A DNA stretch of 64,000 bases from Gracilariopsis chorda (Eukaryota; Rhodophyta; Florideophyceae; Gracilariales; Gracilariaceae). Below, piece by piece: positions 32,383 to 59,137 of the stretch (positions are counted from its first letter, which is position 1; each line of letters starts with the position of its first letter). The position numbers and the translations under genes are program-made. The notes under the pieces are model-generated. The model made no database searches. It saw nothing but the letters and a program-made list of their open reading frames with translations, and was not told the origin of the DNA. The DNA is taken from NCBI GenBank assembly GCA_003194525.1, contig NBIV01000036.1, forward strand, positions 248,001-312,000, given 5' to 3'.

Positions 32383-32387
32383 ACCAT
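32383..32387 (+). repeat. gypsy2 target-site duplication, left
   Basis: ACCAT, repeated exactly at 43,870-43,874 beyond the other LTR. This fixes both outer ends of gypsy2. Confidence 0.9.
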
Positions 32388-33043
32388 TGAAGTGCAACGC
32401 CCTCAGGGAGGGATTCGTGGTACTTGATCGTTTTCCAGATATTATCGGTTGTGTAGTGTGTATATGAATTACGCCCCACAATGGTGGGTATGGACACGTG
32501 GGACACGGTTTTGGGTCAATTGACGGTTGGCCACAGTAGTGGATGTTGCCACGAAATGTGGAGGAATAGGAATAAAAACCCCTAAAAACCCCTTGCACAT
32601 CTAAAGAAGCCCATCCTTGGGAGTATAATTGTTCCAATCATATTGGTGTTTCGCCCTGTATAGGGAGTCCTGTCCACCGGCATTGCCGTATCTGTTCGTC
32701 GCTCTCGCGAATCACTTCGTCCTCTCTTCCTCCTCTTCGCCCTTCCTTTTCCCCCTTTTTAGGGTAGCACCTCCCGCTATCCGCGGCCCTCGTGTGCGCA
32801 TCCGCTCACACACCCCCACTTACGTGGAAACATACCTCTATTGAGGATCACACCCCGCTCACGCGGATACCAATTCTTCGCTTTCACCTCCCTGCGCAAG
32901 TCGCGTTATGTGTCCCTGGTCTTACAAACCGGCTTCGCCGTGACACCTCTGGGAGGGAGGGCTCTACCCAACTGGGTTCACCTCGTGAGAGGAAGATCCC
33001 GGACGTATTTCGGTGTTTTTCCCCTTTGGGGCATTGCACCACA
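32388..33043 (+). repeat. gypsy2 5' LTR
   Basis: 656 bases, starting TGAAGTGCAACGCC and ending GCACCACA. It repeats at 43,043-43,869, which is about 170 bases longer. Confidence 0.9.
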
Positions 33044-33046
33044 AAG

Positions 33047-33068
33047 TGGTCTCCCGACCTAGAATCGG
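33047..33068 (+). other. gypsy2 primer-binding site (tRNA-Tyr-like)
   Basis: TGGTCTCCCGACCTAGAATC plus GG, three bases inside the LTR. Its complement has the layout of a tRNA 3' end: part of a T loop (CGATT), T stem CTAGG, acceptor strand TCGGGAG, discriminator A, then CCA. G72 would pair with C1, the pair typical of eukaryotic tRNA-Tyr. Confidence 0.65.
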
Positions 33069-33148
33069 TTTTTGTTTTCCCTCTTACGAGGTTTGTTTTC
33101 ATTCACCGGAAGTTCCGTGATCGTTTCCCGTCGTAACGGTATTTTCTC

Positions 33149-35245
33149 ATGTCGAGAAATCCCTCCGATGCGGAGCCAGTGGTTACGCGTAGTCGCTCCC
33201 GCGACAACGCGGACACTTCCGAAGTTCGGTTCGTACCCCGTATCCCTATACGGACAAGTTCTAGCCGTGCTGGCGCCGCTTCATCGCGGAATGATACCCC
33301 CGACCGGGAACCCCGGGACCTCCTTTTGCCCTCGTTATCACCCCCGCAGGGGAATGCAGCATCGACTCCGGCTGTTGCCGCAGTGCCCCAGGCACCCCGG
33401 CCCGCTCCCGCTGTCGCGGCTTCAAACCCCCGTGGAACGGGCGATAACACCCCCCAGAGAACTTCCCTGGAATCCCAGGTCCGCGCTCTGTGGACCGCCC
33501 ATGACACCCTTGTAGGGGAACTAAAATCCTTCCAAGAGGTGGTCTTGGCAACCCCCGTAAAGGAGGTTGCCGAGGAACTCCGTATTTTACGGTCTGACGT
33601 CAACTCCTTGTTGGAGAGTTTGGGACAACCCGCCACCTTCATCGAAGGAGTTGAAGCCCGATTTGATCGGATTGGTGCCCGCCTGGAGACGCTGGAGCAG
33701 ATCGTCCTCATGGACAAACCATCCCCGGATGATCCGGTAAACGAGGCATCGCACAACGACCAGCTTGCTGGGAAGAAGAAACGCCGTCATCGACGGAAAC
33801 ACCACCGAAAATATTCGGACTCCGATTCTTCGACATCGTCGGACTCATCCCGAAACCATTCGGTTAGCTCGAGCTCCTCGGACTCCAACTCGGAGGACGA
33901 GAAGCGAGGCTACTCCTCCCACTCGAAGCGGTCATCGGCCACTGAAGGTGTGGTCCGAACCCGCCAGAAGGGGAGAAGACACCCCGGTCTCCGGGATTTG
34001 AAACCGACCAACCCGAAATACCAGAAGCTTTTATCATACCGGTACTACCGGCTCGAAGACTCGTCACTTGGACGTACGCCCCGCGGTACGGGAAAGGTGC
34101 GAGAATGCATTAAGCGAATGCAGCTCTCGCTCCGCAACCAGTATTTTACTGGAGAGGACCCGGTCCTAGTACTGGATTTCCTATCCCGCTTTGTAGCGGA
34201 GGCCGATATCCTCGGTATGAATGAGGGAAAAGCCTATTTGGCTTTACCGTATTTCTTACGGGGAGTGGCGGAGGACCAATACAACTCTGTCAGAGGATCT
34301 TCTCGTGCCTCCGAGGGAGGAGTTACTTGCTGGCCGGAGGCTGTGCAGTATCTACTGCGCTCCTACGCCACAAGCACCGCTATTCAGCAGGCTATCCTCG
34401 CTTTGCGAGATACACGCCAGCGTGCTGGAGAGACCGAGACCGATTACTCGGTGCGCCTTAACAAGAATTTCCACAGATGTGGTAACGTGTACCCCGCTGG
34501 GGAGCGCAGTACCATGTTCATCGATGGTCTTGACCCGGCAATCTGGAGTTTAGTTACCCGTTATCGGGAGGATAAGCGGAGGATCACCTATCTCGAGCTG
34601 GTTCAACACGCTCGAGCGGAAGGGGATGCACTTCGTGCAAGAACTCCGAACAATCGGTCTAAATCAGCCAAGGCGTTGTTGCTGGAAAGCGAAGCTTCCT
34701 CACTCCCGCTCACTGCGGATGGGAACCCTGGACAGGGATTTGATACCGTGCATTTAGTGCAGGGGGATGGTGTGTCGATACCCACCAGTGATTTGCCGTC
34801 AACGACGGAGATGACCCGTGATACGGGAACAGAAGATCCCGGTCTATACGGTGGTAACGGTCGGGTCCAACCCCAACGACTCCCGTTTTCAAACGGTCAA
34901 TCCCGTTATCAACGGCGTGGATGGACTGACACCCGCCCTGCGGTTCGCTTCTCCGATACTCGGAATAATAATCCGCGTGTCGCGGTATTGGCTCTCATTT
35001 GCCACCTGTGCTATGCCCATGGCCATACCTCACCTCAGTGTATTTGTTCACTGAAGGATATGGCCAAGGTAGTGGCAAATTATGAGGCCCTCACTCCAGA
35101 AGAAAAACGTTCCGTCCCGACGGCTTCCTACCTCCGTGCTAAAACGGACTTTTCCCATGCCCTACCACAGACCACGCGTGCGCGGCAAGCTTCATACACC
35201 CCGATTCGGGAGATCACGCAACCATCCGTTGCAACCCCCGCTTAG
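33149..35245 (+). CDS. gypsy2 gag protein
   Basis: An open frame of 698 codons from ATG, 105 bases after the LTR. The N-terminal 280 residues are Ser/Pro/Arg-rich with long Ser-Asp runs and are probably disordered. Residues about 310-490 form the capsid-like retrotransposon gag domain (YFLRGVAEDQYN and a W..AV.YLLRSYA stretch). A CCHC zinc knuckle, CHLCYAHGHTSPQC, lies near residues 618-631 and should bind RNA. This gag is longer than most Ty3/Gypsy gags because of the charged N-terminal region. It is the virus-like-particle structural protein of the element. Confidence 0.85.
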   Translation: MSRNPSDAEPVVTRSRSRDNADTSEVRFVPRIPIRTSSSRAGAASSRNDTPDREPRDLLLPSLSPPQGNAASTPAVAAVPQAPRPAPAVAASNPRGTGDNTPQRTSLESQVRALWTAHDTLVGELKSFQEVVLATPVKEVAEELRILRSDVNSLLESLGQPATFIEGVEARFDRIGARLETLEQIVLMDKPSPDDPVNEASHNDQLAGKKKRRHRRKHHRKYSDSDSSTSSDSSRNHSVSSSSSDSNSEDEKRGYSSHSKRSSATEGVVRTRQKGRRHPGLRDLKPTNPKYQKLLSYRYYRLEDSSLGRTPRGTGKVRECIKRMQLSLRNQYFTGEDPVLVLDFLSRFVAEADILGMNEGKAYLALPYFLRGVAEDQYNSVRGSSRASEGGVTCWPEAVQYLLRSYATSTAIQQAILALRDTRQRAGETETDYSVRLNKNFHRCGNVYPAGERSTMFIDGLDPAIWSLVTRYREDKRRITYLELVQHARAEGDALRARTPNNRSKSAKALLLESEASSLPLTADGNPGQGFDTVHLVQGDGVSIPTSDLPSTTEMTRDTGTEDPGLYGGNGRVQPQRLPFSNGQSRYQRRGWTDTRPAVRFSDTRNNNPRVAVLALICHLCYAHGHTSPQCICSLKDMAKVVANYEALTPEEKRSVPTASYLRAKTDFSHALPQTTRARQASYTPIREITQPSVATPA

Positions 35246-35340
35246 GCGGATAGAAACCCCCGTCAACGGGATGAAGCACTCGTTGTCGAGGGAACCAACC
35301 CACCACCGAAGGCGGAAAACTAACTGAGGGAGTCTCCCCT

Positions 35341-36381
35341 TTGGGAGAGGCGTCCTCAAGAACGAGGCTGTTGGCGCCCGAGGCGTCCTCGCCTCGCTCC
35401 CGGGTGAAAGTCCTCTCGAGGAAAGACACCGCTGACGCGGACTCTGCGCACCTCGGTGTGTTGCGTCGCCCGTGGATACGGAGTAAAAATCCCCGGATTC
35501 CCGGTAGAGTCTTGGTCTTGGCCAAGCGCAACTATAGGGTCTATGCCGACCTTGGCCTTGACCCCCAGTTTATGGTGAGGTTTCTCACCGTCCTGGATAC
35601 AGGTGCAGGCCCCAACATTGTTGTGGAATCATTGTTACCCCCGCTTGTGCGGTCTCGTATCCGCTCTGACGCGGTCCCCGACATTTCGGATGCGAACAAC
35701 AATCCGTTACAAACGGTGGGCACAGTGGACCTCGTCGTGAGACTTGGTACCTTTGTGGTGAAGTTGGACTTCATCGTTTGCCGTTCATTGGCAGCACCAG
35801 TCATACTGGGATGTGATTACTGCGACAGATTTGTCGACGCAATCAGGCCCCGCCTCAGGCGTGTAGAACTTGACGACGGATCGTCGGTTCCTATTGTTCG
35901 CCGCCCGCTAAAGCGGTCCTCTCGGAAACAAGTTCCGCTCCCTGCTGCGCAGGAACCACCGCCCGCTTCCCGCGAGTCCACCAAGCTCCGCGTCGCTGCC
36001 TCGGTTTCTATACCGGCTGAGTCCCAAGTCTGGGTGCAGGTAAATTCCCGCCAACACGGTCTTCGGGTTATACAACCCGTCGCCTCGTTGTACGAGAAAT
36101 CCCAGCTGGCGCTAGCTAATGGAATTGTCTCCATTTCCCCGGATGTTCCTTTCCAGATATTGGTTGCCAACCTTGGCAAACACCCCCAGTATCTGGTAAA
36201 ACACCAATTAATTGGGAGTGTAACCCCCCATCCTATGGGAATGCTGCCAACAAAGATGACAGCCGCCAATGTACTCGGAGTTACCACCTCTTCTGAGGAG
36301 TTCGCCCCGCCCTCCGAAGACGTCAAGTCTAAGGAGGGGGAGGAAACCGCTACGTCAGCGTCGAACACACCGAGTAACTAG
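35341..36381 (+). CDS. gypsy2 protease frame
   Basis: A frame of 346 codons between gag and pol. An aspartic protease core is visible near residues 80-165, with LDTGAGPNIVVE (catalytic D-T-G) and a later ILGCDY motif typical of the flap/second-strand end. The N-terminal 80 and C-terminal 150 residues are not recognised. In the family the protease processes gag and pol. It lies in a frame of its own, ends four bases before the pol frame opens, and how it is expressed (read-through, shift or separate start) is not visible. Confidence 0.8.
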   Translation: MGEASSRTRLLAPEASSPRSRVKVLSRKDTADADSAHLGVLRRPWIRSKNPRIPGRVLVLAKRNYRVYADLGLDPQFMVRFLTVLDTGAGPNIVVESLLPPLVRSRIRSDAVPDISDANNNPLQTVGTVDLVVRLGTFVVKLDFIVCRSLAAPVILGCDYCDRFVDAIRPRLRRVELDDGSSVPIVRRPLKRSSRKQVPLPAAQEPPPASRESTKLRVAASVSIPAESQVWVQVNSRQHGLRVIQPVASLYEKSQLALANGIVSISPDVPFQILVANLGKHPQYLVKHQLIGSVTPHPMGMLPTKMTAANVLGVTTSSEEFAPPSEDVKSKEGEETATSASNTPSN

Positions 36382-36384
36382 GAA

Positions 36385-39300
36385 TTGCGAACCACACCTG
36401 TTCCACAGGACAATGCTCCATCGAGCAACCACCGGATTGATCCGGAAAAGGCAATTGAAGCGCTTGAATTTAGCCACGTGCCAGAGTCGCACCGCGACAA
36501 ACTCCGTACCATGTTACGGGAATTCACCACAATGTGGGATGGCTCGCTTGGCGAGATTAACGCAACGGAACACCGGATCGATTTAATACCCGGTGCGCGA
36601 CCGGTCGCACAACCCCCTTACAGGGCAGATCCGAAAGCTCGGGAAGAGGGGCAGTCCCAAGTGGACAAGATGCTCCGCACAGGTGTGATTGAGCTCGCTC
36701 AATCACCCTGGGCATCCCAAGTTGTACTGGCTTTAAAGGCCGAGGGAACCTGGAGGTTCTGTGTCGACTACCGCCGGCTCAATGCCGTGACCGTTAGGGA
36801 CACATACCCTATCCCTCGTATGGACGAGTGCATTGACTCCCTTGGAGACGCCACCGTTTTCACGGCCCTCGATGCCAATTGGGGATATTGGCAAGTACCC
36901 GTCAGACAGGAGGATCCCGACAAAACGGCATTCACCTGCCACGCTGGGACCTACTGCTTCAAGCGGATGCCATTTGGGCTGACCAACGCCCCCGCCACCT
37001 TCCAGCGTGCAGTAGATATTCTACTGAACCGCTTTAAGTGGCCGAGTTGTCTGGTCTACCTTTATGATATTATCATCTTCTCCAACTCGTTGGACGACCA
37101 TCTCACTCACGTCCGAGACGTGCTGACCGTACTCCGCGATGCGGGAATTACCCTCAAGTTGAGGAAATGCGAGTTTTTCACAGATACTGTGAAGTATCTG
37201 GGTCACATTATCCGTCCTGGATGGTTAGCGATCGAGAAAGCTCGAGTCAAATCCCTCGTTGAGGCGAAAGAGCCCCGTACTCAAACGGAACTGCGCTCCT
37301 TTTTGGGGCTGGTCAACGTCTATCGACGGTTTATCCCGAACTTTTCAGATACCGCGGCGCCCCTAAACGCGTTGTTGCGAAAGAGGAACCCCCCAAAACT
37401 GGGAACATTTACGCCCGAGCAATCGGAAGCTTTTAACTCCTTAAAGGAGGCTGTCACATCAGCACCAATCCTACATCTCCCAAAACTTGGGTTGCCATAC
37501 TCCGTAGATACGGACTCGAGCGACTACCAAGTCGGGTGTGCTCTTTTTCAAACCACCCCCGAGGGGGAACGACACCCAATTGGTTATTGGTCGTGCTCGT
37601 TCAATATTCCTGAGCGGAACTACTCCGTATCGGAGAAAGAGTGCCTCGCCGTCGTATGGGCGATGACCACTCCGCGCCCCTACCTTATGGGAATTCACTT
37701 CACCGTGTACACGGATCATTCCTCATTGAGGTGGTTGATGAATATCTCCGACCCGTCGGGACGCCTCATGCGCTGGAGACTCCGCGTCGCGGAATATGAC
37801 TTTCAAGTCATTTATAGAAAGGGTGCGCAGAACACCCAGGCCGACGCTTTGTCGCGGTTACCCACAAGTGGGGAAGCACTCCCAACGGAGGATGATGAAG
37901 TCCCATGTTTCATGGCCATAGACCCGGATGATCCGGAATGTGCCATCGAGGCTGCGCCAGAAATCTGGGACGAGGATGCTGACTTTGACGAACTACTCGC
38001 ATCGCGAGATGAATCTGAGAACCCGTTACCGGGAAACTTTGCACCGGTATCACCGGAAGAAATGATCCGCGAACAATTCGGCGACCCATTCTGTACGAGG
38101 ATTCGTGCCCGTATCAACGGTGGTGAAGATCTCCCTTTCGGGGTAAACGACAAAGGCTATCTCGTAAGGAAGGTCGAAGCCCGCCCACAGATTGTGGAAC
38201 CTCATTCCCTGCAGTCGCGGGTGTTACATCTATCACACCACGCCCCCATTGGAGGTCACCCAGGTGGGAGGAAACTCTACCTAACCCTGCCAGGGGATTT
38301 CTATTGGCGCGCCATGGCGGTGGATTGCTACGCAACCGTGCGTTTTTGTAGCGAATGCGCGAAGAATCGCGTCAAACTCCGCAAAAATGCGAAAAAGATG
38401 AAACTATTCCCCGCAAGGGCGCCGCTCGAGTTTATCGCGATCGATATTCTCGGACCAATACTCACCACGAAACGTGGAAACAAGTTTCTACTTGTCATTA
38501 CCGACCGCTTTTCTAAGCTGGTACGGACTGTCCCTCTTCGGAGGATAACCGTTCTCACGGTGGCCCAGGCTCTGCTGACGCACTGGATTTTCGTCTACGG
38601 TCCCCCTCTGGAGGTGCTCTCCGATAACGGGAAACAGTTCGTGAGCAAGTTCTTCCAGGATGTTTGTCGCATCCTGGATGTCAAGAACTTGTTCAAGACT
38701 ACCTACCACCCCCAGTGTAATGGGCAAGTTGAACGGTTCAACCGAATGTTACTCGCGGCGTTACGTTCCTACGTCGCAGACCACCCAAAGAACTGGGACA
38801 TGTACGCTGATGCGTTAACCTACGCGTACAATACGCAGGTACACCGGACTACCGGAGTTTCGCCATTCGAGTTGGTTCTATCTAGAACAGCTCCGCCTGT
38901 GGCGCTGGAACCCCAAGCTACCTTAGACAATTTCCCATCTGTGGGTATCTACCGCCAGCAATGGAAGCAATGGCTTTCCAAGCTGGTCTCCGCTGCGCGG
39001 ATGTCAATGGCTCGGGCCCAAGCGGCTTACAAGCCGGATTTTGATGCTCGCTTGCGAGGGAAACCGTCCCCGATTCGGGCGAATAACTACATCTTCATAA
39101 GGAAGGAGTACTACAACCTGGAACGGGAGAAGCGCCATAAACTCTCGCCTGTGGCGGATGGACCATTCAAGGTCATCTCTGTGAACACCGACACTGTCGT
39201 GGTAGAGATGGGCGACACGCACGAACGGATCTCCCATGATCGTGTTGTCCTTGCCCCTCCTCCCTCGTCAGATGTAAATCTGGATCCAGGCAACCCCATT

Positions 39301-39702
39301 TCTACGGACTCTGCAACACCGGAACCATCCGGGAGTACTAGGTCTACGGTACTACCACACCCCAGCCGGGGCCTCTCAGACCTACCGACCCTGTCGGCCT
39401 CACTGGCTCAGCCAGGTAATTCGGGCCTCTCAGCGCCCGCCCCTATCACGTCTGCCCCACTGGCGCGCATTTATACCCGCCAGGCGGGGAATGTTATCCC
39501 TTATCCCGCCGCTCCGTCTAAGGAGGGGGAGGAGAACACTCGTTTTCGAGGAACGATATCGCCGTCGCAACGGGAAACACACCGTAAAATACGGAACACT
39601 GACCGTGGAGCACGGAGTATGTCACGCGACACAATCCCCCGTTCTCGGGCAGTGCTGTGCAACAGGAACCAGACACGCAGGCCCCGCAAAAGCGGCAAAT
39701 AA
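36385..39702 (+). CDS. gypsy2 pol (RT, RNase H, integrase)
   Basis: An open frame of 1,105 codons in Ty3/Gypsy order. RT spans residues about 70-290 (FCVDYRRLNAVTV near 127, RMPFGLTNAPATFQ near 193). RNase H spans about 365-490 (YSVDTDSSDYQVGCALFQ, YTDHSSLRWL). The integrase HHCC zinc-binding part follows near 617-660 and the catalytic core near 680-830 (FIAIDILGPI, YGPPLEVLSDNGKQF, YHPQCNGQVERFNRML). A GPF/Y-like module (SPVADGPFKV) precedes a Pro/Ser-rich C-terminal region. The chromodomain follows further downstream in another frame. The element would copy its RNA to DNA and insert it. Confidence 0.9.
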   Translation: MRTTPVPQDNAPSSNHRIDPEKAIEALEFSHVPESHRDKLRTMLREFTTMWDGSLGEINATEHRIDLIPGARPVAQPPYRADPKAREEGQSQVDKMLRTGVIELAQSPWASQVVLALKAEGTWRFCVDYRRLNAVTVRDTYPIPRMDECIDSLGDATVFTALDANWGYWQVPVRQEDPDKTAFTCHAGTYCFKRMPFGLTNAPATFQRAVDILLNRFKWPSCLVYLYDIIIFSNSLDDHLTHVRDVLTVLRDAGITLKLRKCEFFTDTVKYLGHIIRPGWLAIEKARVKSLVEAKEPRTQTELRSFLGLVNVYRRFIPNFSDTAAPLNALLRKRNPPKLGTFTPEQSEAFNSLKEAVTSAPILHLPKLGLPYSVDTDSSDYQVGCALFQTTPEGERHPIGYWSCSFNIPERNYSVSEKECLAVVWAMTTPRPYLMGIHFTVYTDHSSLRWLMNISDPSGRLMRWRLRVAEYDFQVIYRKGAQNTQADALSRLPTSGEALPTEDDEVPCFMAIDPDDPECAIEAAPEIWDEDADFDELLASRDESENPLPGNFAPVSPEEMIREQFGDPFCTRIRARINGGEDLPFGVNDKGYLVRKVEARPQIVEPHSLQSRVLHLSHHAPIGGHPGGRKLYLTLPGDFYWRAMAVDCYATVRFCSECAKNRVKLRKNAKKMKLFPARAPLEFIAIDILGPILTTKRGNKFLLVITDRFSKLVRTVPLRRITVLTVAQALLTHWIFVYGPPLEVLSDNGKQFVSKFFQDVCRILDVKNLFKTTYHPQCNGQVERFNRMLLAALRSYVADHPKNWDMYADALTYAYNTQVHRTTGVSPFELVLSRTAPPVALEPQATLDNFPSVGIYRQQWKQWLSKLVSAARMSMARAQAAYKPDFDARLRGKPSPIRANNYIFIRKEYYNLEREKRHKLSPVADGPFKVISVNTDTVVVEMGDTHERISHDRVVLAPPPSSDVNLDPGNPISTDSATPEPSGSTRSTVLPHPSRGLSDLPTLSASLAQPGNSGLSAPAPITSAPLARIYTRQAGNVIPYPAAPSKEGEENTRFRGTISPSQRETHRKIRNTDRGARSMSRDTIPRSRAVLCNRNQTRRPRKSGK

Positions 39703-40382
39703 ACCGTTTGTCACGGGAAAACGAGAAGCCTCCCTCCAATCCCGCAGCAGTGGAAATGCAATCGCCCGATCCATCCCCGGAGGCATTTCCACAAACACGG
39801 GAAATATACCGTGCCACACGGGAAGTTGAAGCGCAACTACCGCACACCCCTGTTATAGAAGGATCCCCGATACGGGAGTATGGTGAAGATTGTCCCCAAC
39901 CCCCTGAGCAGAGGGATGCATCGAAGCCGCCATTGGCGGGAGCCCCCGCGGAGAAGAGGCGTCCAGATACGCCAGCCTTACAGGGAAATACCCACACCCC
40001 TCTTGGGGAAAAAGGCAGCCAAGCCGCAGTCGAAGCTTCAGGCCCTTGCGTGCAAGTGCCGGAAACGCCTCCCGTCGTCGACGGAATCGAAGCCCCCGCT
40101 CCGGGGAATAATTTGCGCCGACCCCCGCAACGCTGCGGCGAAGAACCGAGGAACTCGGGAAAAAACGCGCGCCATCGCACGCTCGAAACCGGTCGTACCG
40201 GACGCTGCTCCTCCTCATGGAGATGGTGCACCGCGCTTAATGGCAATTCCCCTGAGAAGGGGGTCATCGGCACCTGCCCGGCACCCCCCAAAGGGGAATT
40301 TTGACCAAAATACCGGTGTACCGGAGTTAGCCCCAGGCAACCCGTCAGTAACCGGGGACACCACGGCGTCGCCGGAACGTAG

Positions 40383-41009
40383 GTGCAGAGCGCTCGTGCA
40401 CCTAGCAGGGAGGCGGAACGCTTACCAATCACCGTGTCGCACGGGACCCCGCAGGGGATGTCGCAAACGCCATTCCCGCATACGCGGCAAGAACCCCGCA
40501 AGCTCGCGGTTCGCGAAGAAGACCGCACTCGCGGAGTTCAAGTCCCCGGCCGGTTGGCGGTTCGCCCGGCCTACCGTGAAGACGGGAACAAGGACACCCC
40601 TCTGGGGAACGACTTGCCGGTGGAAACCGTGACGCCACACACCCTCTTGAGGGATATTTTCCCGCATGAGCAGCGGCCACTAGGACAGCGCACGGCAACG
40701 CCGGAGACATCGCCGACAACCCGGATAAGGGGTAATATACCGCGCAGCGGACAACCCTCGCAAGGGAATGCAACCACCACCCGGCACGGCCGGCAGGTCT
40801 ACGAACGAGAGTTCGTAGTAGACCGACTTGTCGGACACACCTGGGACCAGGATGGTATTCTACAATACCGCGTCCGCTGGTACGGGTATGACCCCAGTGG
40901 GGATACGTGGGAGCCAATTGAACACCTCCCACGATCACAGGTCGTGCGATACCACCGTCATACGGGAACTGCAGCCCCAGCCACGCTGGTTAATGCCCAA
41001 GTCGGGTAA
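40383..41009 (+). CDS. gypsy2 C-terminal frame with chromodomain
   Basis: A 208-codon frame downstream of pol. The first 135 residues are low-complexity, Arg/Pro/Thr-rich. A chromodomain follows at 40,796-40,970: YEREFVVDRLVGHTW, YRVRWYGYDPSGDTWEP, IEHLP. The three aromatic cage positions look present (Y, W, Y/W). In chromoviruses this domain sits at the end of integrase and directs insertion to histone-marked chromatin. How it is joined to pol is not visible. Overlapping low-complexity frames between 39,657 and 40,632 may be part of the same long linker. Confidence 0.75.
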   Translation: MQSARAPSREAERLPITVSHGTPQGMSQTPFPHTRQEPRKLAVREEDRTRGVQVPGRLAVRPAYREDGNKDTPLGNDLPVETVTPHTLLRDIFPHEQRPLGQRTATPETSPTTRIRGNIPRSGQPSQGNATTTRHGRQVYEREFVVDRLVGHTWDQDGILQYRVRWYGYDPSGDTWEPIEHLPRSQVVRYHRHTGTAAPATLVNAQVG

Positions 41010-41196
41010 CGCTGCCGCGCGGGCGGAGGGCAGTAACAAGGGATAGCAAGGGAAAGTCCGTCCAAGACGGGGAATTCTAAATGGAAATCACCCTCCGAGA
41101 TGGGAAAGTTTACCTAGTGGAGCAGCAAGCTCGATACTACACTACACTAACTGGCATAAACAGGGAAAGAAGAACCAGGAAACTGGACTACAGGTT

Positions 41197-42984
41197 TCAC
41201 TCACCCCCATCGTCCGGGGCGTAACCACCAGCGAGGCGGTAGGCCAACGCGTCTGCCCTGGAGGTGACATCCCCCGATACCTCGGCAGCGCTCAGACCGG
41301 CACCCCGGAGAAAACGTGCGATGATCTCGTTTTCATTCGCCGTCACCCCGCTGGGGATAGAAGGTCCGGCACTTGCCGCCGAAGGGTCAGCAGCCGGCTC
41401 GGCCGGAGATATCCCCTCTGGGAAAACTTCCGCGCTAGGGCCGGTTTTCTCTACGTCCATCTCCCCGGGTTCTTCCGGTTCGTTATCGACCATTGGGTCA
41501 TCCCTGCCGTATGCGCGGTAGTAGTCGTCAGAATCGACGTACCCAACGGGGTGGTCTTCCGGCACATGCCGGGGCGTATCGCGAAGCTCGCGCGCCTCCT
41601 CGGAGGAAATTTCCCGGAACTCCCAGGGGTCGAAGTAGATAAAATCCCCCGCAAGGGCGGTGTTTCTACCGAGTCCTGGACCACCGGTGTTACCGCTGCC
41701 GCCATCCAAACGACCGCTTTGCTCCAGCGGGACCTCACTCCAGCTAACGCTGTCGATGTACCCAAGTAATTGGAGGACCTCTTCATTGTTGGCCTGGCCC
41801 CCAAGGGGGATGCGAAGATCCAAGTTGCAGATCGCTGCCCGCACATGCGGTGGGAGGAACCAGAGACGAAACTGGTCGTACGCCTCGTTGAGGATATAAG
41901 CCGCAGCGTGGGCCGCCCACTCCGTAGCCACTACGGACCACAACCCCGACCGGGGATCCTGCATTAGCAGCGAACCGAGGTACGTAATTACCGGCGGGAG
42001 TTCTATGTAGCACCCCCGGCAGGCTTCATGGAAGCGCCACCAATCGGGGAGTGCTACATACCGACTTAGTCGGTGAGGCGGCGCAATCCGCTCTATATCC
42101 ACGTTCTGATACGGGATGAAATACCCGAATCGGGATCGCCAACGCCGCTCATAGCGGATGAAGTTTTGGAGAAAGTTGGACCGGTATTGTCGGGGAAGAT
42201 ACCTGAACTCCGCCCGAATAATCGGTCGCTCCCAACAAAGGGCTTCTTGCCACGCTGCGGGGAAATTCCTCCAAGCGAGGGTCTCGAGGCGGAACAGGTT
42301 GTCGCCGTATCCAATCTCCCCGCGAGTGCGGAAGTGGCTAATGTCGAAACCGAACTCCAGTGGGACCGGTACATCGAATGGAGCCCGGCTCTGCCGTTGG
42401 TATGCCATGCGTGTCAACGCGGTCTGCGCCGCAGCGACGGTCTCGCCCGAATTCCTTCGGAGGTGGTGACGCGGAATCGCAATCCGGTGACGCCAATCCC
42501 ACGATGTGGTGACTGCTCTGGGCAGATCCCCCGGAAGGGTATCTGAGCCATCCGCATAAGCGGTGAACAATCCCTCATTGAGGACAGCGACCGGGTGAAA
42601 CCAAGGGGCAAGGCGCAGGCGCGACGCGTGATTCCGATTCATCGGGTTGAGCCCCACCAGGGTTTTGTAGGTTGGCCAGTTGAACGCCGGAGTGGTTCCG
42701 GAGGACACCACCGAAGGTGGTAGTGCGAAGGGATGGTCGGCTGCAGCAGCCATATTCCCCGGTTGTACCGGATGTCGATCGCCCTGAGGCAGGGGAACCG
42801 ACCGGAAACCGGTGGTGTATCGCCCGAGAGGCCTCGGAGGTTGGCTGTTATGGTTGATGTTGTTGTCGTTGTTCATTTCTCCCTTTTTGAGGGTGGCTGT
42901 TGTTGTTGTTTGTGCGCTCGATGACTCTGGTGCAGAGGGATTTACCGGAGAACCGGAGACAGAGCACGCGCTTTTATCACCCAT
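41197..42984 (-). CDS. gypsy2 antisense ORF, 595 codons, unknown function
   Basis: A complete open frame from ATG (42,984), opposite in strand to gag-pol and filling the space between chromodomain and 3' LTR. The N-terminal 80 residues are Ser/Thr/Asn/Gln-rich. Residues about 100-400 look globular, rich in Trp, Arg, Tyr and Phe. The C-terminal 190 are acidic with many Pro, Gly and Ser. A core at residues about 312-360 (ALPDWWRFHE, PPVITYLG, LWSVVATEWA) matches the gypsy1 antisense ORF. No transmembrane span, signal peptide or known enzymatic motif is seen. Extra antisense ORFs are known in some plant Ty3/Gypsy (Tat-lineage) elements; homology to those is untested. The start is only 58 bases from the LTR, so its promoter probably lies in the LTR. 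Confidence 0.7.
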   Translation of the reverse strand: MGDKSACSVSGSPVNPSAPESSSAQTTTTATLKKGEMNNDNNINHNSQPPRPLGRYTTGFRSVPLPQGDRHPVQPGNMAAAADHPFALPPSVVSSGTTPAFNWPTYKTLVGLNPMNRNHASRLRLAPWFHPVAVLNEGLFTAYADGSDTLPGDLPRAVTTSWDWRHRIAIPRHHLRRNSGETVAAAQTALTRMAYQRQSRAPFDVPVPLEFGFDISHFRTRGEIGYGDNLFRLETLAWRNFPAAWQEALCWERPIIRAEFRYLPRQYRSNFLQNFIRYERRWRSRFGYFIPYQNVDIERIAPPHRLSRYVALPDWWRFHEACRGCYIELPPVITYLGSLLMQDPRSGLWSVVATEWAAHAAAYILNEAYDQFRLWFLPPHVRAAICNLDLRIPLGGQANNEEVLQLLGYIDSVSWSEVPLEQSGRLDGGSGNTGGPGLGRNTALAGDFIYFDPWEFREISSEEARELRDTPRHVPEDHPVGYVDSDDYYRAYGRDDPMVDNEPEEPGEMDVEKTGPSAEVFPEGISPAEPAADPSAASAGPSIPSGVTANENEIIARFLRGAGLSAAEVSGDVTSRADALAYRLAGGYAPDDGGE

Positions 42985-43028
42985 TTTCGTCTGGGAATCC
43001 TCCGCGTCCGTGGTCGTTTTCCCGTTTT

Positions 43029-43040
43029 AGGGGGAGGGGA
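43029..43040 (+). other. gypsy2 polypurine tract
   Basis: AGGGGGAGGGGA directly before the TA|TGAAGTGC start of the 3' LTR; the expected plus-strand primer of Ty3/Gypsy elements. Confidence 0.8.
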
Positions 43041-43042
43041 TA

Positions 43043-43869
43043 TGAAGTGCAACGCCCTCAGGGAGGGATTCTTGGTACTTGATCGTTTTCCCGATATTAT
43101 CGGTTGTGTAGTGTGTATATGAACTACGCCCCAAAATGGTGGGTATGGACACGTGGGACACGGTTTTGGGTCAATTGGCGGTTGGCCACAGTAGTGGATG
43201 TTGCCACGAAATGTGGAGTATTTTAGTTAATATTATTTATTATTTTCACACCCATTTCTGGGAAGCTAGTACTTAGTGCGACGGCGCACTGCCGTCGCAC
43301 TAGTAAACCTTCCCCAACAAGGGACCCCAACCTAGGGAATTGGCTCTAGTTGTTGCCGCTTGCGCGCGTGCTCTACTCCTCCTTGGAGGGAAACGCCGTA
43401 AACCACGGGACATCTAACCCCCTTGCACATCTAAAGAAGCCCATCCTTGGGAGTATAATTGTTCCAATCGTATTGGCGTTTCGCCCTGTATAGGGAGTCC
43501 TGTCCACCGGCATTGCCGTATCTGTTCGTCGCTCTCGCGAATCACTTCGTCCTCTCTTCCTCCTTTTCGCCCTTCCTTTTCCCCCTTTTTAGGGTAGCAC
43601 CTCCCGCTACCCGCGGCACTCGTGTGCGCATCCGCTCACACACCCCCACTTACGTGGAAACATACCTCTACTGAGGATCACACCCCGCTCACGCGGATAC
43701 CGATTCTTCGCCTTCACCTCCCTGCGCGAGTCGCGACAGTTGTCCCTGGTCTTACAAACCGGCTTCGCCGTGACACCTCTGGGAGGGCTCTACCCAACTG
43801 GATTCAACTCGTGAGAGGAAGATCCCGAACGTCTTTCGGTGTTCTTCCCCTTTGGGGCATTGCACCACA
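43043..43869 (+). repeat. gypsy2 3' LTR
   Basis: 827 bases. Compared with the 5' LTR it has an additional segment (about 43,222-43,420) with an AT-rich start and a perfect 12-base inverted repeat with 5-base loop at 43,274-43,302 (TAGTGCGACGGC / GCCGTCGCACTA). Confidence 0.9.
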
Positions 43870-43874
43870 ACCAT
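43870..43874 (+). repeat. gypsy2 target-site duplication, right
   Basis: ACCAT, identical to 32,383-32,387. Confidence 0.9.
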
Positions 43875-49000: not shown

Positions 49001-49876
49001 CTAATGAGAGGCATGACCCGCACACGCGAGCAGCCCGCTGTCGGACACCAAACTATGTAGACGACAAAGACGGCGAGCAAGTCTCATGCTAGTAACCGAC
49101 ATTGTAGAACGAACGGCTCTTTCCACAAGCTTTGGGTGCAGTTCCTTCGCTCCAAACAACATTCCCCTCAACTGGTCCCTGAGACTCTGGCCCACGGCCG
49201 GCGGCACCCAGAACGGTACCCAAAACGCGACGTACGCCACCCCCAGAAGTAGACCGACGACCACGTCGAGAATGTGGTGGCGGCCGAGAGCGACGCGGCT
49301 CACACCGGTGGCCAGGGCCCACAAGACGACGCAGGGCACCACCACGCCCCAGACCGCCCAGCTTAATGGCAGCTGATAGTGTGCTGCAGCCACAGGCACA
49401 AAGGCAGCCACGAGACCAGCGCGTGTAGCATGACCAGACGGGAATGAAAATTGGTCTACGGCGTGTAGAGAGAGGGGGGCAATCGAACGGTTGTAGTGTG
49501 GACGAGAACGACGGAAAAGGGGTTTGAAAAGAGCAATGAGACCAAGGTCGATAATTGTTACCGCGAGGAGATTGACGAGCAGCGCCGAGTTTGTCGGTGA
49601 TAAAGAGGGATAAAAGAGAAGAACTAGAAGGGGAACAATGAGCCAGGGGACGCCATGAGCTGCTATCTCAAGCAGGTGGAGAGGAAAGGTGGGCAGGTGA
49701 GCGTTGTAAGAGCGGTAGATGAAGTAGGAGGCATCTTTGTCCCAGTCGACCAGAAGCTGGAAAGGTGAGCGCATCGTAGTGGGGGTGGCAGAGCGGAGGT
49801 CGGAGCGCTCTGCCACCTGCGTAGGGAGCAGTGGCGAATCGATGGTGAAGAGCTGTTGCAGTTGTGTGCGGCGCAT
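49001..49876 (-). CDS. PAP2-family membrane phosphatase (PLPP6-like)
   Basis: 291 codons from the ATG at 49,876. It has the full three-part active site of the PAP2 superfamily: KPLFRRSRP (residues 118-126), PSGH (146-149) and SRVALGRH (193-200), followed by D204. His149 and His200 would be the catalytic histidines. Hydrophobic spans at about 74-90, 97-117, 151-165, 172-192 and 204-222 fit a multi-pass enzyme of the endoplasmic reticulum. The family hydrolyses lipid phosphates; length and motif spacing resemble presqualene/polyisoprenoid diphosphate phosphatases (PLPP6 type), so a role in isoprenoid diphosphate turnover is likely but not proven. The last 65 residues are not conserved-looking. 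It faces the 47,487 gene tail to tail. Confidence 0.85.
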   Translation of the reverse strand: MRRTQLQQLFTIDSPLLPTQVAERSDLRSATPTTMRSPFQLLVDWDKDASYFIYRSYNAHLPTFPLHLLEIAAHGVPWLIVPLLVLLFYPSLSPTNSALLVNLLAVTIIDLGLIALFKPLFRRSRPHYNRSIAPLSLHAVDQFSFPSGHATRAGLVAAFVPVAAAHYQLPLSWAVWGVVVPCVVLWALATGVSRVALGRHHILDVVVGLLLGVAYVAFWVPFWVPPAVGQSLRDQLRGMLFGAKELHPKLVERAVRSTMSVTSMRLARRLCRLHSLVSDSGLLACAGHASH

Positions 49877-50734
49877 AAGCGGCTCGTATCTACACAACAG
49901 AGCACGGAGGAGATGTCCATATGACGACCATCACAAGCCGGCAATGCCTGACAGCCTACGTGGCAACGTGGCGCGCGTTGGCAGCACCGTTGCCCGCCGA
50001 ACGTGCCGTTGCGCACATTATTGTAACTTTACGGCGCTTTTTTGCCAGCCTTGACCACGTCATCATTCACTACCAAGGGTAGCTCCTTCCGAATCTTCCC
50101 TCCTCCTGCCCTCCTGTGGATGCGTTATCCTACCTGTTGGTTGGCCCCGGTAATCAACTCCCGGAGCATGCCAGGTTTGTGCTCCTACACGCCTTTTTCC
50201 TTCTTCCCCTTTTTCCTTCCGTGCAACTTGCAGGGGTCGTACTTTGTGGGGTTGATCTGTCCTTACAGGTCCGAGTGTTGGAGGAGGAATCGTTGCTGGC
50301 TAGAATTTACGTCGCAAACCCTTCTTTGTCAGGGAAGGCCTCGACTGCTGATCTGCTTCGCTTTCCCCAGGCTTATCATGCTATGCTAGCAGCATGTCCT
50401 GCACAGTACCACGAGCGGAGCAATACGATGGGCCCCGGCTCGGAACTCACGCCTGTCCACAGGGGCTTCCACACCGCAAACCCAAACCAACAGAGACTAA
50501 CGTCGCACACCCTACAGGTGCCGCACGTGTCCCGTCCACAAGACGCGCATCGCTGTCGCCATACCGAACTGACGAGCCCACAACGCGTCGACATTCTTTA
50601 CTTCCCATTCCTTCAGACATTGCAGAACCCAGTGAGAACTATCATCATATCACATCTCATATGAGTTGACCGTCATCCCGTGAAGCAAACAGCCCTTCAA
50701 ACCAATGGTATCATAGTTGCTAATCGCTCTCTCA
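49877..50734. other. Intergenic stretch between PAP2 gene and POP1
   Basis: Upstream region of the PAP2 gene and downstream region of POP1. A plus-strand open frame (50,116-50,664) has no ATG at its start; a GT...AG pair (GTAATC near 50,151; TTGCAG near 50,235) could mark an intron of an unrecognised gene. Evidence is too thin to call it. Confidence 0.35.
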
Positions 50735-52924
50735 TCAAACTTCAGGGGGAAGCACCGTTACAATACCGCCACGATAATGAAGCGAATCCGTGTTCCTGAA
50801 CAGCACCACCACGCCCTTCTTTCCACCATTTCTGACATTCGCTGCCCTCGGGAGCCGACGTAGAGCGCTCAGCGCGATAAAACCCGTTGCCACGGGACTT
50901 CCGGTTGACATACTCCAACCGCCAAGACTGATATAACCAACAACTTCCCGCGTAGGCTTCGTCTTGCCCTGCTTCGGTTCTGCTTTCTCCTCCCTTTCCC
51001 CTACGTACTTTGCACCCAGTTTCCGCATAGAGTCCATGTCCGCTACATTTGGTTCGCAGAGAATACCGTTTTTCTCTGGCCCGCCACGAGACAGTGGCTT
51101 GATGCAAACCCGAGCGAAGTGCTTGCAGTGCCGCTCAGTCGCTTCATTATTCATGCTGTTTTTTTCTTTCACCACTGTAGATGAGTGCAGGCATTGTCGC
51201 TGCTGTCCTCTTTTTAGACTGCTGTTGGTGATAAGTCTTTGGTACAACGATGTTCCCAAAAGCTCTTCCAGCAGCGAGCGATCTCTAACTATGCGAATCG
51301 AATCTTGAATCTCTACGTTGGGGTCCAGCCTTGGTCGCTTTGGTTTCCGGCTAAGTATTCTAATTTCGGAGTCTCTCACGCCACTCAGGTCAGGAATCAT
51401 AGGCGATTCGATCCTGTTCATCGTGTAGTTCACTCTTTTTGCAGGCGGACGACGGTGGTACCACTCGTTCTTGTTCAGCATTTCTGTCTCCATTAACGAG
51501 TATCCTACTGCTCCATCCTGGAAATCCTCCGGGAACACTTCAAGCAAGTTCTCGATACGAAGGCGACGCATTTCTTCAACTCCAATTGCCCTCGCTCCGT
51601 TCGCATACATTAGAGAATTCCAGAAAATCATTCCAGTTCCTGGGGGAATCAGCAAGTCATATCCTCCAGCAACTGACATTGGTCGTTGAAGCAGAATGAA
51701 AGGCATCTCCTCAAGCACGGACTTTCCTTTCCCAGTGGCAATGCGCTCCTTCCATAACTCTCGCTCCTTATCGTGCCATAGTTCACTCACAGGAACCGTT
51801 TGAAAGGCTTTCCCGATGTCGCCGGTACCACCCACGAGTTTTGCGTTCTCGCTCATTCTCTTCGGTGGAAAACTAGCTCTCGGATCTTCAGCGTGTCCCG
51901 CAAATACACAATCTGCAGGTAGACAGTTTGCCGAACGAGCCCGAGCTATGTGAGAGAAGTATATACTTTTGCACTGAAGAACTGAAGCAAGAACGATTCC
52001 ACTTCGAGGACCAAAGAGAGAGAAGATCTGAGGGGGGAATGTTAACTTTTGTATCTTCGTTGTTCGCGTGGCATGATTCACCAGTAATCTTAGCACAAGA
52101 TCAGTTAGGCTGGGTTGAATCCATACCCAAACCTTGGTGTCTTCTTCTGATTCTCTCATCACAACATCGCCTTCCGCGGACGGTACTACCTCTGAACGTG
52201 GCTGCCATAAGATGTCCGAAGGACCAACAGTTCTATCACCATCCATGATTATAACATTTGTGACGCGACGGAGGCCTTTAACCACGGGGTCTGTTGTCAC
52301 CCTCGAACCGTGTGCTCCGGTCGCTGCCTTCAATAGGGCTTTCAGTTTGTTTACGTTTCCTGTAATCTCTATAATGTCCAAGTAACTTGCGTCGTGAAGT
52401 ACGCATGCACGGGCAGAAGCTCGGTACGCAGAACGATACCCACGGTCGTTGCACCTCATGGCAACATGTCGTCCCCCAACATTCCCCATCAAGAAGCGCT
52501 TCGCATGCCATATATGTGTTTCAAGCCATGCTTCGTTCTTTGATCTGAGCTTTCGAATAGCTTTCAAGAAGCGCGCCTTCTTTCTATACTTTCGACATCG
52601 AGCTGCTCCTTTCGGACCAATTTGACGCTCAGGCACACCAGGTGGGCGTTGTTTTGCTAACTGAGCTGCGTGAGCTGCCCGTAATCTTGCTGGCATTCTC
52701 CTGGAGGAGTGAGACATTGTTCGTCGCCGACCATGCCATGCGAGCTGTTGATAAACGCGACGCGTTCCAGTGGAAGACGAAGTCGCATTTCGCAACGTTC
52801 GTAGCTCCAGAGCTCGTGCAACTGCAAAGTCCACGACATCCAGAGTTGTGTTTTGTACCTGACGCTGACGGTCCGGCCTGCTTCGGTTGTTTGTAGTTGG
52901 AGCCCTGGATATCGATGGTGCCAT
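50735..52924 (-). CDS. POP1: POP1, core protein of RNase P and RNase MRP
   Basis: 729 codons from the ATG at 52,924, close to yeast and human POP1 sizes (about 875 and 1,020) but shorter. The N-terminal POP1 domain shows the hallmark run of basic residues (KYRKKARFLKAIRKL) followed by WLETHIWHAKRF and a second cluster CVLHDASYLDIIEITG (residues about 100-200). The POPLD domain is visible at about 405-520 (GGYDLLIPPGTGMIFW, GARAIGVEE, EWYHRRPPAKRVNYT). The C-terminal part (PVATGFIALSALRRLP, VLFRNTDSLHYRGG) is the conserved end. The protein scaffolds the RNA in tRNA 5' maturation (RNase P) and pre-rRNA cleavage (RNase MRP). No intron is seen. It is divergent from MPP10. Confidence 0.93.
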   Translation of the reverse strand: MAPSISRAPTTNNRSRPDRQRQVQNTTLDVVDFAVARALELRTLRNATSSSTGTRRVYQQLAWHGRRRTMSHSSRRMPARLRAAHAAQLAKQRPPGVPERQIGPKGAARCRKYRKKARFLKAIRKLRSKNEAWLETHIWHAKRFLMGNVGGRHVAMRCNDRGYRSAYRASARACVLHDASYLDIIEITGNVNKLKALLKAATGAHGSRVTTDPVVKGLRRVTNVIIMDGDRTVGPSDILWQPRSEVVPSAEGDVVMRESEEDTKVWVWIQPSLTDLVLRLLVNHATRTTKIQKLTFPPQIFSLFGPRSGIVLASVLQCKSIYFSHIARARSANCLPADCVFAGHAEDPRASFPPKRMSENAKLVGGTGDIGKAFQTVPVSELWHDKERELWKERIATGKGKSVLEEMPFILLQRPMSVAGGYDLLIPPGTGMIFWNSLMYANGARAIGVEEMRRLRIENLLEVFPEDFQDGAVGYSLMETEMLNKNEWYHRRPPAKRVNYTMNRIESPMIPDLSGVRDSEIRILSRKPKRPRLDPNVEIQDSIRIVRDRSLLEELLGTSLYQRLITNSSLKRGQQRQCLHSSTVVKEKNSMNNEATERHCKHFARVCIKPLSRGGPEKNGILCEPNVADMDSMRKLGAKYVGEREEKAEPKQGKTKPTREVVGYISLGGWSMSTGSPVATGFIALSALRRLPRAANVRNGGKKGVVVLFRNTDSLHYRGGIVTVLPPEV

Positions 52925-53941
52925 TCTGCTCAAGATTTTTGTCGAAGCGGCATTTGGTTCAGTTTAGTTCGGATTCAAGGCAAGGGTTATAGGGATAACC
53001 TGCAAACAACAGCAGTTAGATGGTCAGCAGATGATACAGTGGGAGGGAGTCACACGTAAGGAGAAAAAGAGTTAAAATGTGATCCATCAGCATAAACAAG
53101 ACCCAATATCGTTCGGATCAACCCCGGTGCTCCGTTCAGACGCCTGGGTAGCAATTCTTTGTTCCTGAAGGGTTAGATTGCTGGCGTGTAGCTGCCTTTG
53201 TAGTAACCCTTTACCCTTGTAAAGGGATTGCTAGCCATGGTACAGTGGGTAATAGGACTGTCCAACGTTCCTGAACGGGAGGTTTTCTGGTAATTGAAGG
53301 AACGACAATGTAGTTTTTATTGGCAATTACGCAAGGTGGACGACGACTTTGATAAAGGACTGGCTTGTGCAGCGGATACGCCATCTCAGTCTCCGTCTCC
53401 GTCGTCGCACACCCACAGCCTTGAAGTGGCCGTTCTTGCTTTTCAAACCCTCCCACGTCTCCACACGGCTACTCATCCATCAATCATGGATTGTGCTTGT
53501 GAAGAGTGAAGAGTCTTCACATGCCTGCGAATACTCTTTGCAGCAACTGGTACGCACGCCAGCAATGCTCGACCAAATTATTTAAAACAAGGTTTAAATG
53601 TTCTGGCCACTGAAAGTGTGCAAGAATAAAAACGCCATACTCAATAACAAATCCGAAAATTCCCAGTTGTCAGTCAGCTATTGGATGTCCGAACTCGACA
53701 GCGTTAGCACGTTAGCGCATGTTGGCGACGGCGTGACGCATTCCATGATCCGGCTAGAGCTCTTCGTTCCTGCTCTTGAGTTTCTGGACTTACCTACGGT
53801 ACCCTTCGGTAAGAGGTTAAGGGGTAAAACGTGACTCTTCGTGCTCTTCGAAGTGATACCAAGAGTACTAAGAAACCCTCTGCCCCCGCACCACCGCGCT
53901 GTTTCCTTTTCTCCCACCGAGATCGATTCTCCTTTAACCTC
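52925..53941. promoter_or_regulatory. Divergent intergenic region between POP1 and MPP10
   Basis: About 1 kb holding the 5' flanks of both ribosome-biogenesis genes. It includes an inverted repeat with 8-base arms (53,207-53,214 and 53,219-53,226, CCCTTTAC / GTAAAGGG) and a 6-base-arm repeat (CTTACC 53,789-53,794, GGTAAG 53,808-53,813) near the MPP10 start. No TATA box is convincing. Regulation is inferred only from the layout. Confidence 0.4.
53207..53226. repeat. Perfect 8-base inverted repeat with 4-base loop
   Basis: CCCTTTAC-CCTT-GTAAAGGG, about midway between POP1 and MPP10. Could form a hairpin or be a palindromic protein site. Confidence 0.6.
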
Positions 53942-57697: not shown

Positions 57698-58362
57698 CAA
57701 GGTGCATATCTAGCTAGCTAGAGGTGTAGTCACGAGGATAAAAGATAGCAATCTAGCCGTCCGTCGGTAGATTACAAGGAGCAGCATAAGGCTTAGCAGT
57801 GGCTACAGTACCAACGGTACAGGTACCTTTGGTACGGAGTAGATACCGCGGTCGGTTTTCGCGGGAACTTGTCTTTTGTATTCAAGAATGTGATCACAGA
57901 TCTGCGTCAAACAGATCGCACCAATCAAATCACGTTTAACGATGACTTGACCTACCCTTCGGTACCGTTCGTACCCAACTGCTAGGTCTGATCTTTGACG
58001 GCAAAGTTACAGATTTGGAACTGTGAACCAACGCCATTCGTCGCAGTAGACGGATTCGTATTATCTATAGGTGCTGTTCTTCCGAAACTTTCGCTTTGGG
58101 GGTTCCCCTTGTCAGTTGTGTGATACATCTAGGAGCAGTCTAGTAACTCCTTTGAGTTGCCGTAACCGTACCGTAATTGCCAGAAAACTGTTGCTCAGTC
58201 TACTTCGAACTATTTTCAGTTCTCCGAAACAAATCGACGACTCGGGACCTCAACAAGCAGCTATCTTGAGCTACATATTCCTCGAGTTCTCACAGTTTGG
58301 ATAGATTCTCAGCTCTAGTTGACGATTCAGAGACCTCATTTCGATCTTTCAAATCAAACAAC
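57698..58362. other. Intergenic stretch with GTACC palindromes
   Basis: Between MPP10 and the membrane-protein gene. It contains short inverted repeats GTACC-AAC-GGTAC (57,809-57,821), GTACC-TTT-GGTAC (57,824-57,836), ACCGCGGT (57,846-57,853) and GGTAC-CGTTC-GTACC (57,961-57,975). No ORF is supported. Confidence 0.5.
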
Positions 58363-59059
58363 ATGGTTTTCTTCCCTTCGGAGTTCATACCCGAATATCG
58401 TCCGGCGAAAAAGTACTCTGTTCTTTCCTCCAATGGATGGTGGATGAATCGGTGGCCTTTGCTCGGGTGGTTGGAGACGTTTGTGAAAGTAGCTGCTTGG
58501 ATTGCAGTGCCCTATATTCCTGCTCAACGCACAGAACGTATACCTTCCCTGTCGCCGCAAGTGGCCGTTGAACTCTCAATAATGTTGCTCGCATCTGTTC
58601 TGCTTGCCGTCGCTATCATTGATCGTCTCGTATACCGTGAGATACTATCCATGATATTTGTGTTTCCTAACAACTGGGCACATTGGTCGGTTACTATGGC
58701 TCTGTATCAACATGGACGAGATGGTATTAACGGCAAGTATTTCCGCATTTTCTGCTGGCTTATGCTAACAGGAGATATAGTGAAACTTTTGTTCTTCGCG
58801 GTTCACGACTTTTCGAGAATAGGGGTAGCAATCTATGTAAGTTTCATCTTTCCTTTTTGAGCTTTAGGTTGATGATATGTACTAAGTCTTCGCTCATGTC
58901 CTTCTTTTCTCACGAAAGGTCTTCTATGTCTTAACGGCTCTCTTTGCTGCGATGTATGGTGCAATTCTAGTTTTGGACTACGGATATGGTACCCCATGGG
59001 CCCTGAGTGCTGCTAAGGCCCTTTCTTTGCAGACTTTTTTTGAAAGGCTGCGAAGGTGA
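58363..59059 (+). CDS. Small multi-pass membrane protein, one intron, unknown function
   Basis: Two exons, 58,363-58,836 and 58,919-59,059, give 204 codons. The ATG at 58,363 starts MVFFPSEFIPEYRPAKK. Hydrophobic spans lie at about 38-58 (WLETFVKVAAWIAVPYI), 70-92 (ELSIMLLASVLLAVAIID), 130-150 (FRIFCWLMLTGDIVKLLFFAV) and 158-180 across the exon joint (VFYVLTALFAAMYGAILVLDY), suggesting four membrane passes. The protein ends FFERLRR, a basic tail expected in the cytosol. The joint is phase 0 and the second exon continues a membrane span, which supports the splice. No family is recognised. It converges on TRAPPC13 with only 78 bases between stop codons. Confidence 0.7.
58837..58918 (+). other. 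Spliceosomal intron, 82 bases
   Basis: Begins GTAAGT and ends CACGAAAG. A branch-point-like TACTAAG lies at about 58,880, some 35 bases before the acceptor, with a pyrimidine-rich stretch between. Without splicing, the frame stops at 58,860. Confidence 0.75.
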
Positions 59060-59137
59060 GGATTGCAATGTGTTCATGAAAATACGTAATCGGACATAGC
59101 TAATGTCCGGAATTAATCAAGGGATACGGTTACAACG

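What the first reader, a model, noticed from the sequence alone, without database searches (positions are those of the whole stretch)
41197..42984. Long open antisense ORF in a chromovirus, between chromodomain and 3' LTR
A 595-codon frame opposite to gag-pol has stayed open in an element whose other frames are also long. The region is not overlapped by gag-pol, so it is not a shadow ORF: nothing recognisable lies on the plus strand there. Established: some plant Ty3/Gypsy elements carry extra, including antisense, ORFs of unknown role. Inference: this element carries an accessory gene expressed from an antisense promoter, possibly a regulator of its own RNA or a captured host gene.
Basis: partly seen in the sequence, partly recalled or inferred. 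Interest (0 to 1): 0.75.

Follow-up and report, generated by a model that had tools for sequence, protein, structure and literature searches.

The report
Antisense accessory gene in seaweed retrotransposons
A common jumping gene in a red seaweed carries an extra protein gene written backwards next to its end repeat, and the protein has been kept by natural selection while its carriers diverged widely, although nobody knows what it does.

Summary
The 595-codon frame 41197-42984(-) is real, longer than chance allows, and lies between the chromodomain and 3' LTR of a Ty3/Gypsy element. The host is not a land plant but the red alga Gracilariopsis chorda. The frame is a protein-coding accessory gene of the element. 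In the same genome 58 of 74 scored places of this family have no stop, as do 52 of 69 of a family only 39-40% identical in protein. dN/dS has median 0.29 within the family and is 0.27-0.31 between subfamilies A, B and C, against 1.0-1.8 in four of the other five frames. It is antisense to the chromodomain in 20 of 20 fetched loci. Its start codon position lies 47-58 nt from the LTR in 8 of 8 elements examined, so its mRNA most likely starts in the LTR. Named relatives outside this genome come only from Gracilaria; no Pfam or PDB match; AlphaFold failed. It belongs to a known kind (antisense accessory ORFs of Grande, Retand, Boty), but unlike known families and in a new host group. A regulatory role is untested analogy; host-gene capture has no support.

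The parts
41197..42984 (-). Antisense accessory ORF: 595 codons plus stop, ATG at 42984, open frame reaching upstream to 43026
   Evidence: purifying selection
40383..41009 (+). 3' end of pol with the chromodomain (domain about 40812-40946), convergent with the antisense ORF, 187 nt apart
   Evidence: PF00385 E 5e-11
36382..39702 (+). pol: reverse transcriptase, RNase H, integrase
   Evidence: Pfam PF00078, PF17917, PF17919, PF17921, PF00665
35275..36381 (+). upstream part of pol, separated in this copy from the RT frame by a stop
   Evidence: no Pfam family; protease location inferred
33149..35245 (+). gag-position ORF
   Evidence: position only, no Pfam gag match
32388..33043 (+). 5' LTR, TG...CA; lacks about 170-180 nt that the 3' LTR has
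43043..43869 (+). 3' LTR, TG...CA, presumed source of the antisense promoter
   Evidence: promoter role inferred
43029..43042 (+). polypurine tract next to the 3' LTR
   Evidence: sequence; purine-rich tracts at the same place in the other elements
43150..43155 (.). CACGTG palindrome in the LTR, present in 8 of 8 elements examined
43219..43246 (.). A/T-rich block in the LTR, candidate core promoter on either strand
   Evidence: function inferred
32383..32387 (.). target-site duplication ACCAT, left copy
43870..43874 (.). target-site duplication ACCAT, right copy

Best explanation
The frame is a genuine protein-coding accessory gene of a red-algal chromodomain Ty3/Gypsy retrotransposon lineage. 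SHOWN: it keeps place, strand and frame across four families (A, B, C, D) and is under purifying selection at the protein level. INFERRED (about 0.7): it is translated from a separate antisense mRNA started in the 3' LTR, because the start codon position lies only 47-58 nt from the LTR in the elements examined. INFERRED (about 0.45): the protein acts in trans on the element's own cycle (transcription, RNA fate or nuclear steps), as proposed for Grande GENE23 and reported for HTLV-1 HBZ, rather than as a structural or envelope protein. Protein anatomy: a basic N-terminus of about 130 residues rich in S, T and P, a conserved core (about 131-480), an acidic linker and a short C-terminus conserved in most relatives.
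For: No stop in 58 of 74 scored places and in 52 of 69 of a family 39-40% identical in protein. dN/dS median 0.293 over 253 pairs of 23 copies, other frames 1.09, 1.60, 1.01, 0.417 and 1.755 with 6-23 stops per copy. Between subfamilies A, B and C 0.27-0.31. 42 of 80 changes between the window and L002 are synonymous against 24.5% expected, p 7e-8. dS of this ORF is close to that of RNase H-integrase in the same pairs (L017: 1.48 and 1.38), so it travels with the element. Opposite to the chromodomain in 20 of 20 loci, with a match to the window LTR beyond it in 18 of 20. Start codon position to LTR 47-58 nt, and a CACGTG in the LTR, in 8 of 8 elements examined. No transmembrane stretch (maximum 19-residue hydropathy 1.03).
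Against: No transcript or protein evidence was available. The annotated G. chorda model P0002 appears to bridge a disrupted copy, so it is not expression evidence. The regulatory role rests on analogy alone: no credible domain match, and both AlphaFold jobs failed (pLDDT 31.8 and 33.4). Copies came mainly from the top of score-ranked lists, which favours open frames. Frame -1 also gives a low ratio (0.417), though with 17-20 stops per copy. The pair L012-L014 inside subfamily B shows 0.97 and the broken copy L031 0.53. The start codon is altered in L003, L014 and L030, and L050 has a stop in its last codon. D has a second possible start 176 nt from the LTR, and its A/T-rich stretch is only 9 nt.
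Confidence: 0.62

Rival explanations
1. The open frame is a by-product: the antisense RNA itself matters (dsRNA or small RNA, or a non-coding brake), and the protein does not.
For: Antisense RNA of LTR elements may act through dsRNA, as discussed in PMC7264820 (passages); no protein evidence here.
Against: Selection is codon-based: dN/dS about 0.29 in this frame, shared variable sites 21/12/50 by codon position, and 36-41% protein identity kept between the D family and the others while synonymous sites are saturated or nearly so.
Confidence: 0.06
2. A structural, envelope-like or movement protein, simply written on the other strand.
For: The position between pol and the 3' LTR is where env-like ORFs of other elements lie (PMC7264820, passages).
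Against: No hydrophobic stretch long enough for a membrane span (maximum 1.03 over 19 residues); no plausible family match at E up to 10. A capsid-like or nucleic-acid-packaging role is not excluded.
Confidence: 0.2
3. A captured host gene, or the remnant of another element or virus inserted in reverse in the common ancestor.
For: A separate gene on the opposite strand must have come from somewhere; pol has 6101 relatives at E<=1e-50 (best 120 listed, most without a host name), while this protein gave 3 and 5 hits.
Against: No hit carries a host-gene or viral name; the named ones are hypothetical proteins of Gracilariopsis and Gracilaria. The 20 fetched loci and the D locus L055 have the chromodomain opposite. 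The genomic surroundings of P0001, P0003 and P0006 were not seen. This rival concerns origin, not present role.
Confidence: 0.12

Closest known systems
Antisense additional ORFs between pol and 3' LTR (aORF-3R) of plant Ty3/Gypsy elements: Grande GENE23, RIRE2, Retand (TRP28, PF04195)
   Same: Same place and strand, present in most copies of a family, function unknown; Grande's is transcribed antisense and its protein is nuclear (PMC7264820 passages and section 5, PMC11963269 passages).
   Different: Retand is a non-chromovirus lineage of flowering plants; here the carrier has a chromodomain and the host is a red alga. No TRP28 or other credible Pfam match. Grande's promoter is said to lie upstream of gene23, whereas here only about 50 nt separate the start codon from the LTR.
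Boty of Botrytis cinerea and Sclerotinia sclerotiorum
   Same: A non-plant LTR element with an antisense ORF in the same place (named in PMC7264820, section 5).
   Different: Fungal; its protein was not compared here.
HTLV-1 HBZ and other 3' LTR-driven antisense retroviral genes
   Same: Antisense gene read from a promoter in the 3' LTR (PMC10186651, passages); the layout here allows the same.
   Different: No bZIP or other credible Pfam match; promoter and regulatory function are untested here.

Membership tests
Antisense accessory ORF (aORF-3R) of LTR retrotransposons | ORF antisense to gag-pol, between pol and 3' LTR | tested here: met
   20 of 20 loci antisense to the chromodomain, match to the window LTR beyond in 18 of 20; D family locus L055
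Antisense accessory ORF (aORF-3R) of LTR retrotransposons | Present and conserved in most copies | tested here: met
   58 of 74 and 52 of 69 scored places without stops, lists being score-ranked; dN/dS median 0.293 within A, 0.27-0.31 between A, B and C
Antisense accessory ORF (aORF-3R) of LTR retrotransposons | Antisense transcript | not testable with these tools
   no RNA data on hand
Ty3/Gypsy element with chromodomain (chromovirus) | RT-RNaseH-integrase order and a C-terminal chromodomain | tested here: met
   Pfam; in this copy the chromodomain is in another frame
Ty3/Gypsy element with chromodomain (chromovirus) | Placement in the chromovirus clade by RT phylogeny | not tested
   no tree was built
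Retand/TRP28 protein (PF04195) | TRP28 domain in the antisense ORF | tested here: not met
   6 members of alignment A2 scanned (two of them partial proteins), no PF04195 at E up to 10
HBZ-like LTR-driven antisense gene | Transcription from the 3' LTR | tested here: inconclusive
   start codon position 47-58 nt from LTR in 8 of 8 elements examined; no transcript
HBZ-like LTR-driven antisense gene | bZIP protein | tested here: not met
   no bZIP family among Pfam matches

The most novel reading that the evidence does not exclude
Red-algal chromodomain retrotransposons independently evolved a fixed two-way design: the LTR is a bidirectional promoter whose 5' copy makes gag-pol and whose 3' copy makes an antisense mRNA for a protein family of a fold not yet known, which feeds back on the element, as HBZ does in HTLV-1.
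Probability: 0.3. Interest if true: 0.75.

Novelty: new variant of a known kind. Interest (0 to 1): 0.55.

Why it matters
The role of antisense accessory genes of LTR elements is unsettled (PMC7264820, passages). Here dozens of copies in one small genome give codon-level evidence that such a protein is kept, in a eukaryote group far from flowering plants and retroviruses. Together with the antisense protein of Retand, with which no likeness was found, and HBZ of HTLV-1, it suggests that the slot opposite the 3' end of pol, next to the LTR, has been filled by an antisense gene more than once. The layout makes direct tests possible: LTR promoter activity in both directions, and what the protein binds.

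Tried and rejected
Chance frame: rejected. Non-coding antisense RNA only: unlikely (codon-level selection). Known domain or fold: Pfam for the window protein and for the 6 members of A2, PDB by sequence and by profile: only weak matches (best Pfam E 0.24, best PDB E 0.44). AlphaFold on the whole protein (A4, 5 sequences) and on residues 100-475 (A5, 5 sequences) gave mean pLDDT 31.8 and 33.4, so no fold search was run. P0006 was left out of the fold alignments because it looks frame-shifted. In dN/dS, L037-L039 were dropped as duplicates of L006-L008, and L053 and L054 are cut at the start; codons with gaps or stops were skipped. In one search the L030 antisense-ORF figure mixes two copies and is not used. 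One search failed on a missing locus name and was repeated. One search was run on 8 elements chosen from those fetched.

Full report
WHAT WAS CHECKED. A Markov null of the same composition never exceeded 414 codons in 2000 trials, median 169. It lies in an 11.5-kb LTR element, 32388-43869, with LTRs starting TG and ending CA, the duplication ACCAT on both sides, a polypurine tract at 43029-43042, pol domains by Pfam and a chromodomain.

HOST. G000 (91.3 Mb, 1081 contigs) is Gracilariopsis chorda, a red alga: two proteins named from that species lie on contigs with the exact lengths of G000 contigs C30 and C71, and P0002 matches C30 at 100% over residues 1-491.

COPIES. The protein finds at least 74 places in its own genome at 92-100% identity (the window included); 58 of these 74 have no stop. 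Counts are lower bounds and favour good copies, because only the best candidates are scored. Other subfamilies exist: B (P0002; L012 is 53% identical to the window protein), C (L027, 50%), an intermediate A' (L030, 72%), and D (L055, 39-40%), of which 69 places at about 90-100% identity were scored, some partial, 52 of the 69 without a stop. The 20 loci (one of them the window copy) all show the ORF opposite to the chromodomain, with a match to the window LTR beyond it in 18 of 20 (L023 and L024 lack one). The D locus has the chromodomain (PF00385, E 1.8e-9) opposite to its 643-codon frame.

SELECTION. Over 23 copies of the window's family (253 pairs) dN/dS has median 0.293 in the antisense frame; the other frames give 1.09, 1.60, 1.01, 0.417 and 1.755 and carry 6-23 stops per copy. 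The window against each of the other 22 copies gives 0.26-0.43. One of the 23 copies, L050, has a stop, in its last codon. Shared variable sites fall 21, 12 and 50 on codon positions 1, 2 and 3 (chi-square p 6.5e-7), singletons 56, 49 and 82 (p 0.008). Pairs are not independent; the single pair window-L002 has 42 synonymous of 80 changes where 24.5% are expected, p 7e-8. Between A, B and C the ratio is 0.27-0.31; against D, whose synonymous sites are saturated or nearly so, it is 0.18-0.30 where it can be computed. For comparison, the window against 7 loci of B and C: RT 0.03-0.10, RNase H-integrase 0.12-0.16, chromodomain 0.11-0.18, antisense ORF 0.25-0.29, with similar dS, except that RT dS is higher in the C loci. 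The gene therefore travels with pol and is constrained, though less than pol. Against: L012-L014 within B gives 0.97, and L031, a broken copy, 0.53.

LAYOUT. Start codon position to LTR is 58 nt in the window, 57 in L033, 56 in L030, 47 in two B and two C elements, and 50 for the first methionine of D, with a second at 176 nt. The start codon itself is altered in L003, L014 and L030. The 8 elements examined all have a CACGTG in the first 330 nt of the LTR (chance about 0.07-0.09 each, but they are related) and an A/T-rich stretch further on, only 9 nt long in D. An mRNA for this protein has almost no room for a leader outside the LTR, so a start in the LTR is the simplest reading. This is inference; no RNA was seen.

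PROTEIN. No credible Pfam or PDB relative. Searches of 5.8 billion proteins gave 3 and then 5 hits, with 7997 candidates scored each time: three are named from G. chorda or Gracilaria domingensis, two have no named source. By contrast pol has 6101 relatives at E<=1e-50, the best 120 listed, most without a host name. The N-terminal 130 residues are basic and rich in S, T and P, residues 481-545 are acidic (pI 4.1), and there is no membrane span. The AlphaFold models are unusable.

MECHANISM. Best reading: an antisense mRNA from the 3' LTR makes a trans-acting accessory protein. That it is a protein gene under selection is shown (about 0.95). LTR promotion is inferred (about 0.7). A regulatory role is the most likely of several (about 0.45), by analogy with nuclear GENE23 of Grande and with HBZ; a packaging or other structural role remains open.

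WHAT IS KNOWN. Antisense ORFs between pol and the 3' LTR are a described kind: Grande, RIRE2, Retand, PvRetro13, and Boty in fungi (PMC7264820: passages and section 5; PMC11963269: passages). Retand's carries TRP28, not found here. 3' LTR-driven antisense genes of retroviruses are reviewed in PMC10186651 (passages). Rotifer elements carry extra ORF3s (PMC5408684, passages). For red algae, searches of the held library listed 4, 8, 2 and 4 papers; none of the titles or abstract starts shown describes such an ORF. The genome paper of Gracilariopsis lemaneiformis (PMC5970526, passages) gives repeat totals and states that transposons were removed before gene prediction. Most subscription papers are not in that library.

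VERDICT. Real, constrained, and of a known kind in a new place with a protein unlike those in the libraries searched. Interest moderate to good.

Noticed in passing
32388-33043 and 43043-43869: The two LTRs of the window element differ by a block: the 5' LTR lacks about 170-180 nt, including the A/T-rich block, and has a short unrelated filler; other aligned stretches are about 94-97% identical and the target-site duplication matches.
   Followed up: partly
L024 4870-6765: A mosaic antisense ORF: residues 241-381 of P0002 are matched at 98.6%, other pieces at about 60-72%, suggesting recombination between subfamilies.
   Followed up: no
L020 3558-5012: Subfamily B has about 1.45 kb between the chromodomain match and the antisense ORF (under 200 nt in the window), with no frame longer than 154 codons.
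   Followed up: partly
L030 1305-8000: Two antisense ORFs of different subfamilies (72% and 93% to the window) lie within 7 kb, suggesting nested elements.
   Followed up: no
4174-4986 (-): Fragment of a Ty1/Copia element (RVT_2).
   Followed up: no
49004-62557: Host genes by Pfam: PAP2 superfamily, POP1, Mpp10, TRAPPC13, tubulin.
   Followed up: no
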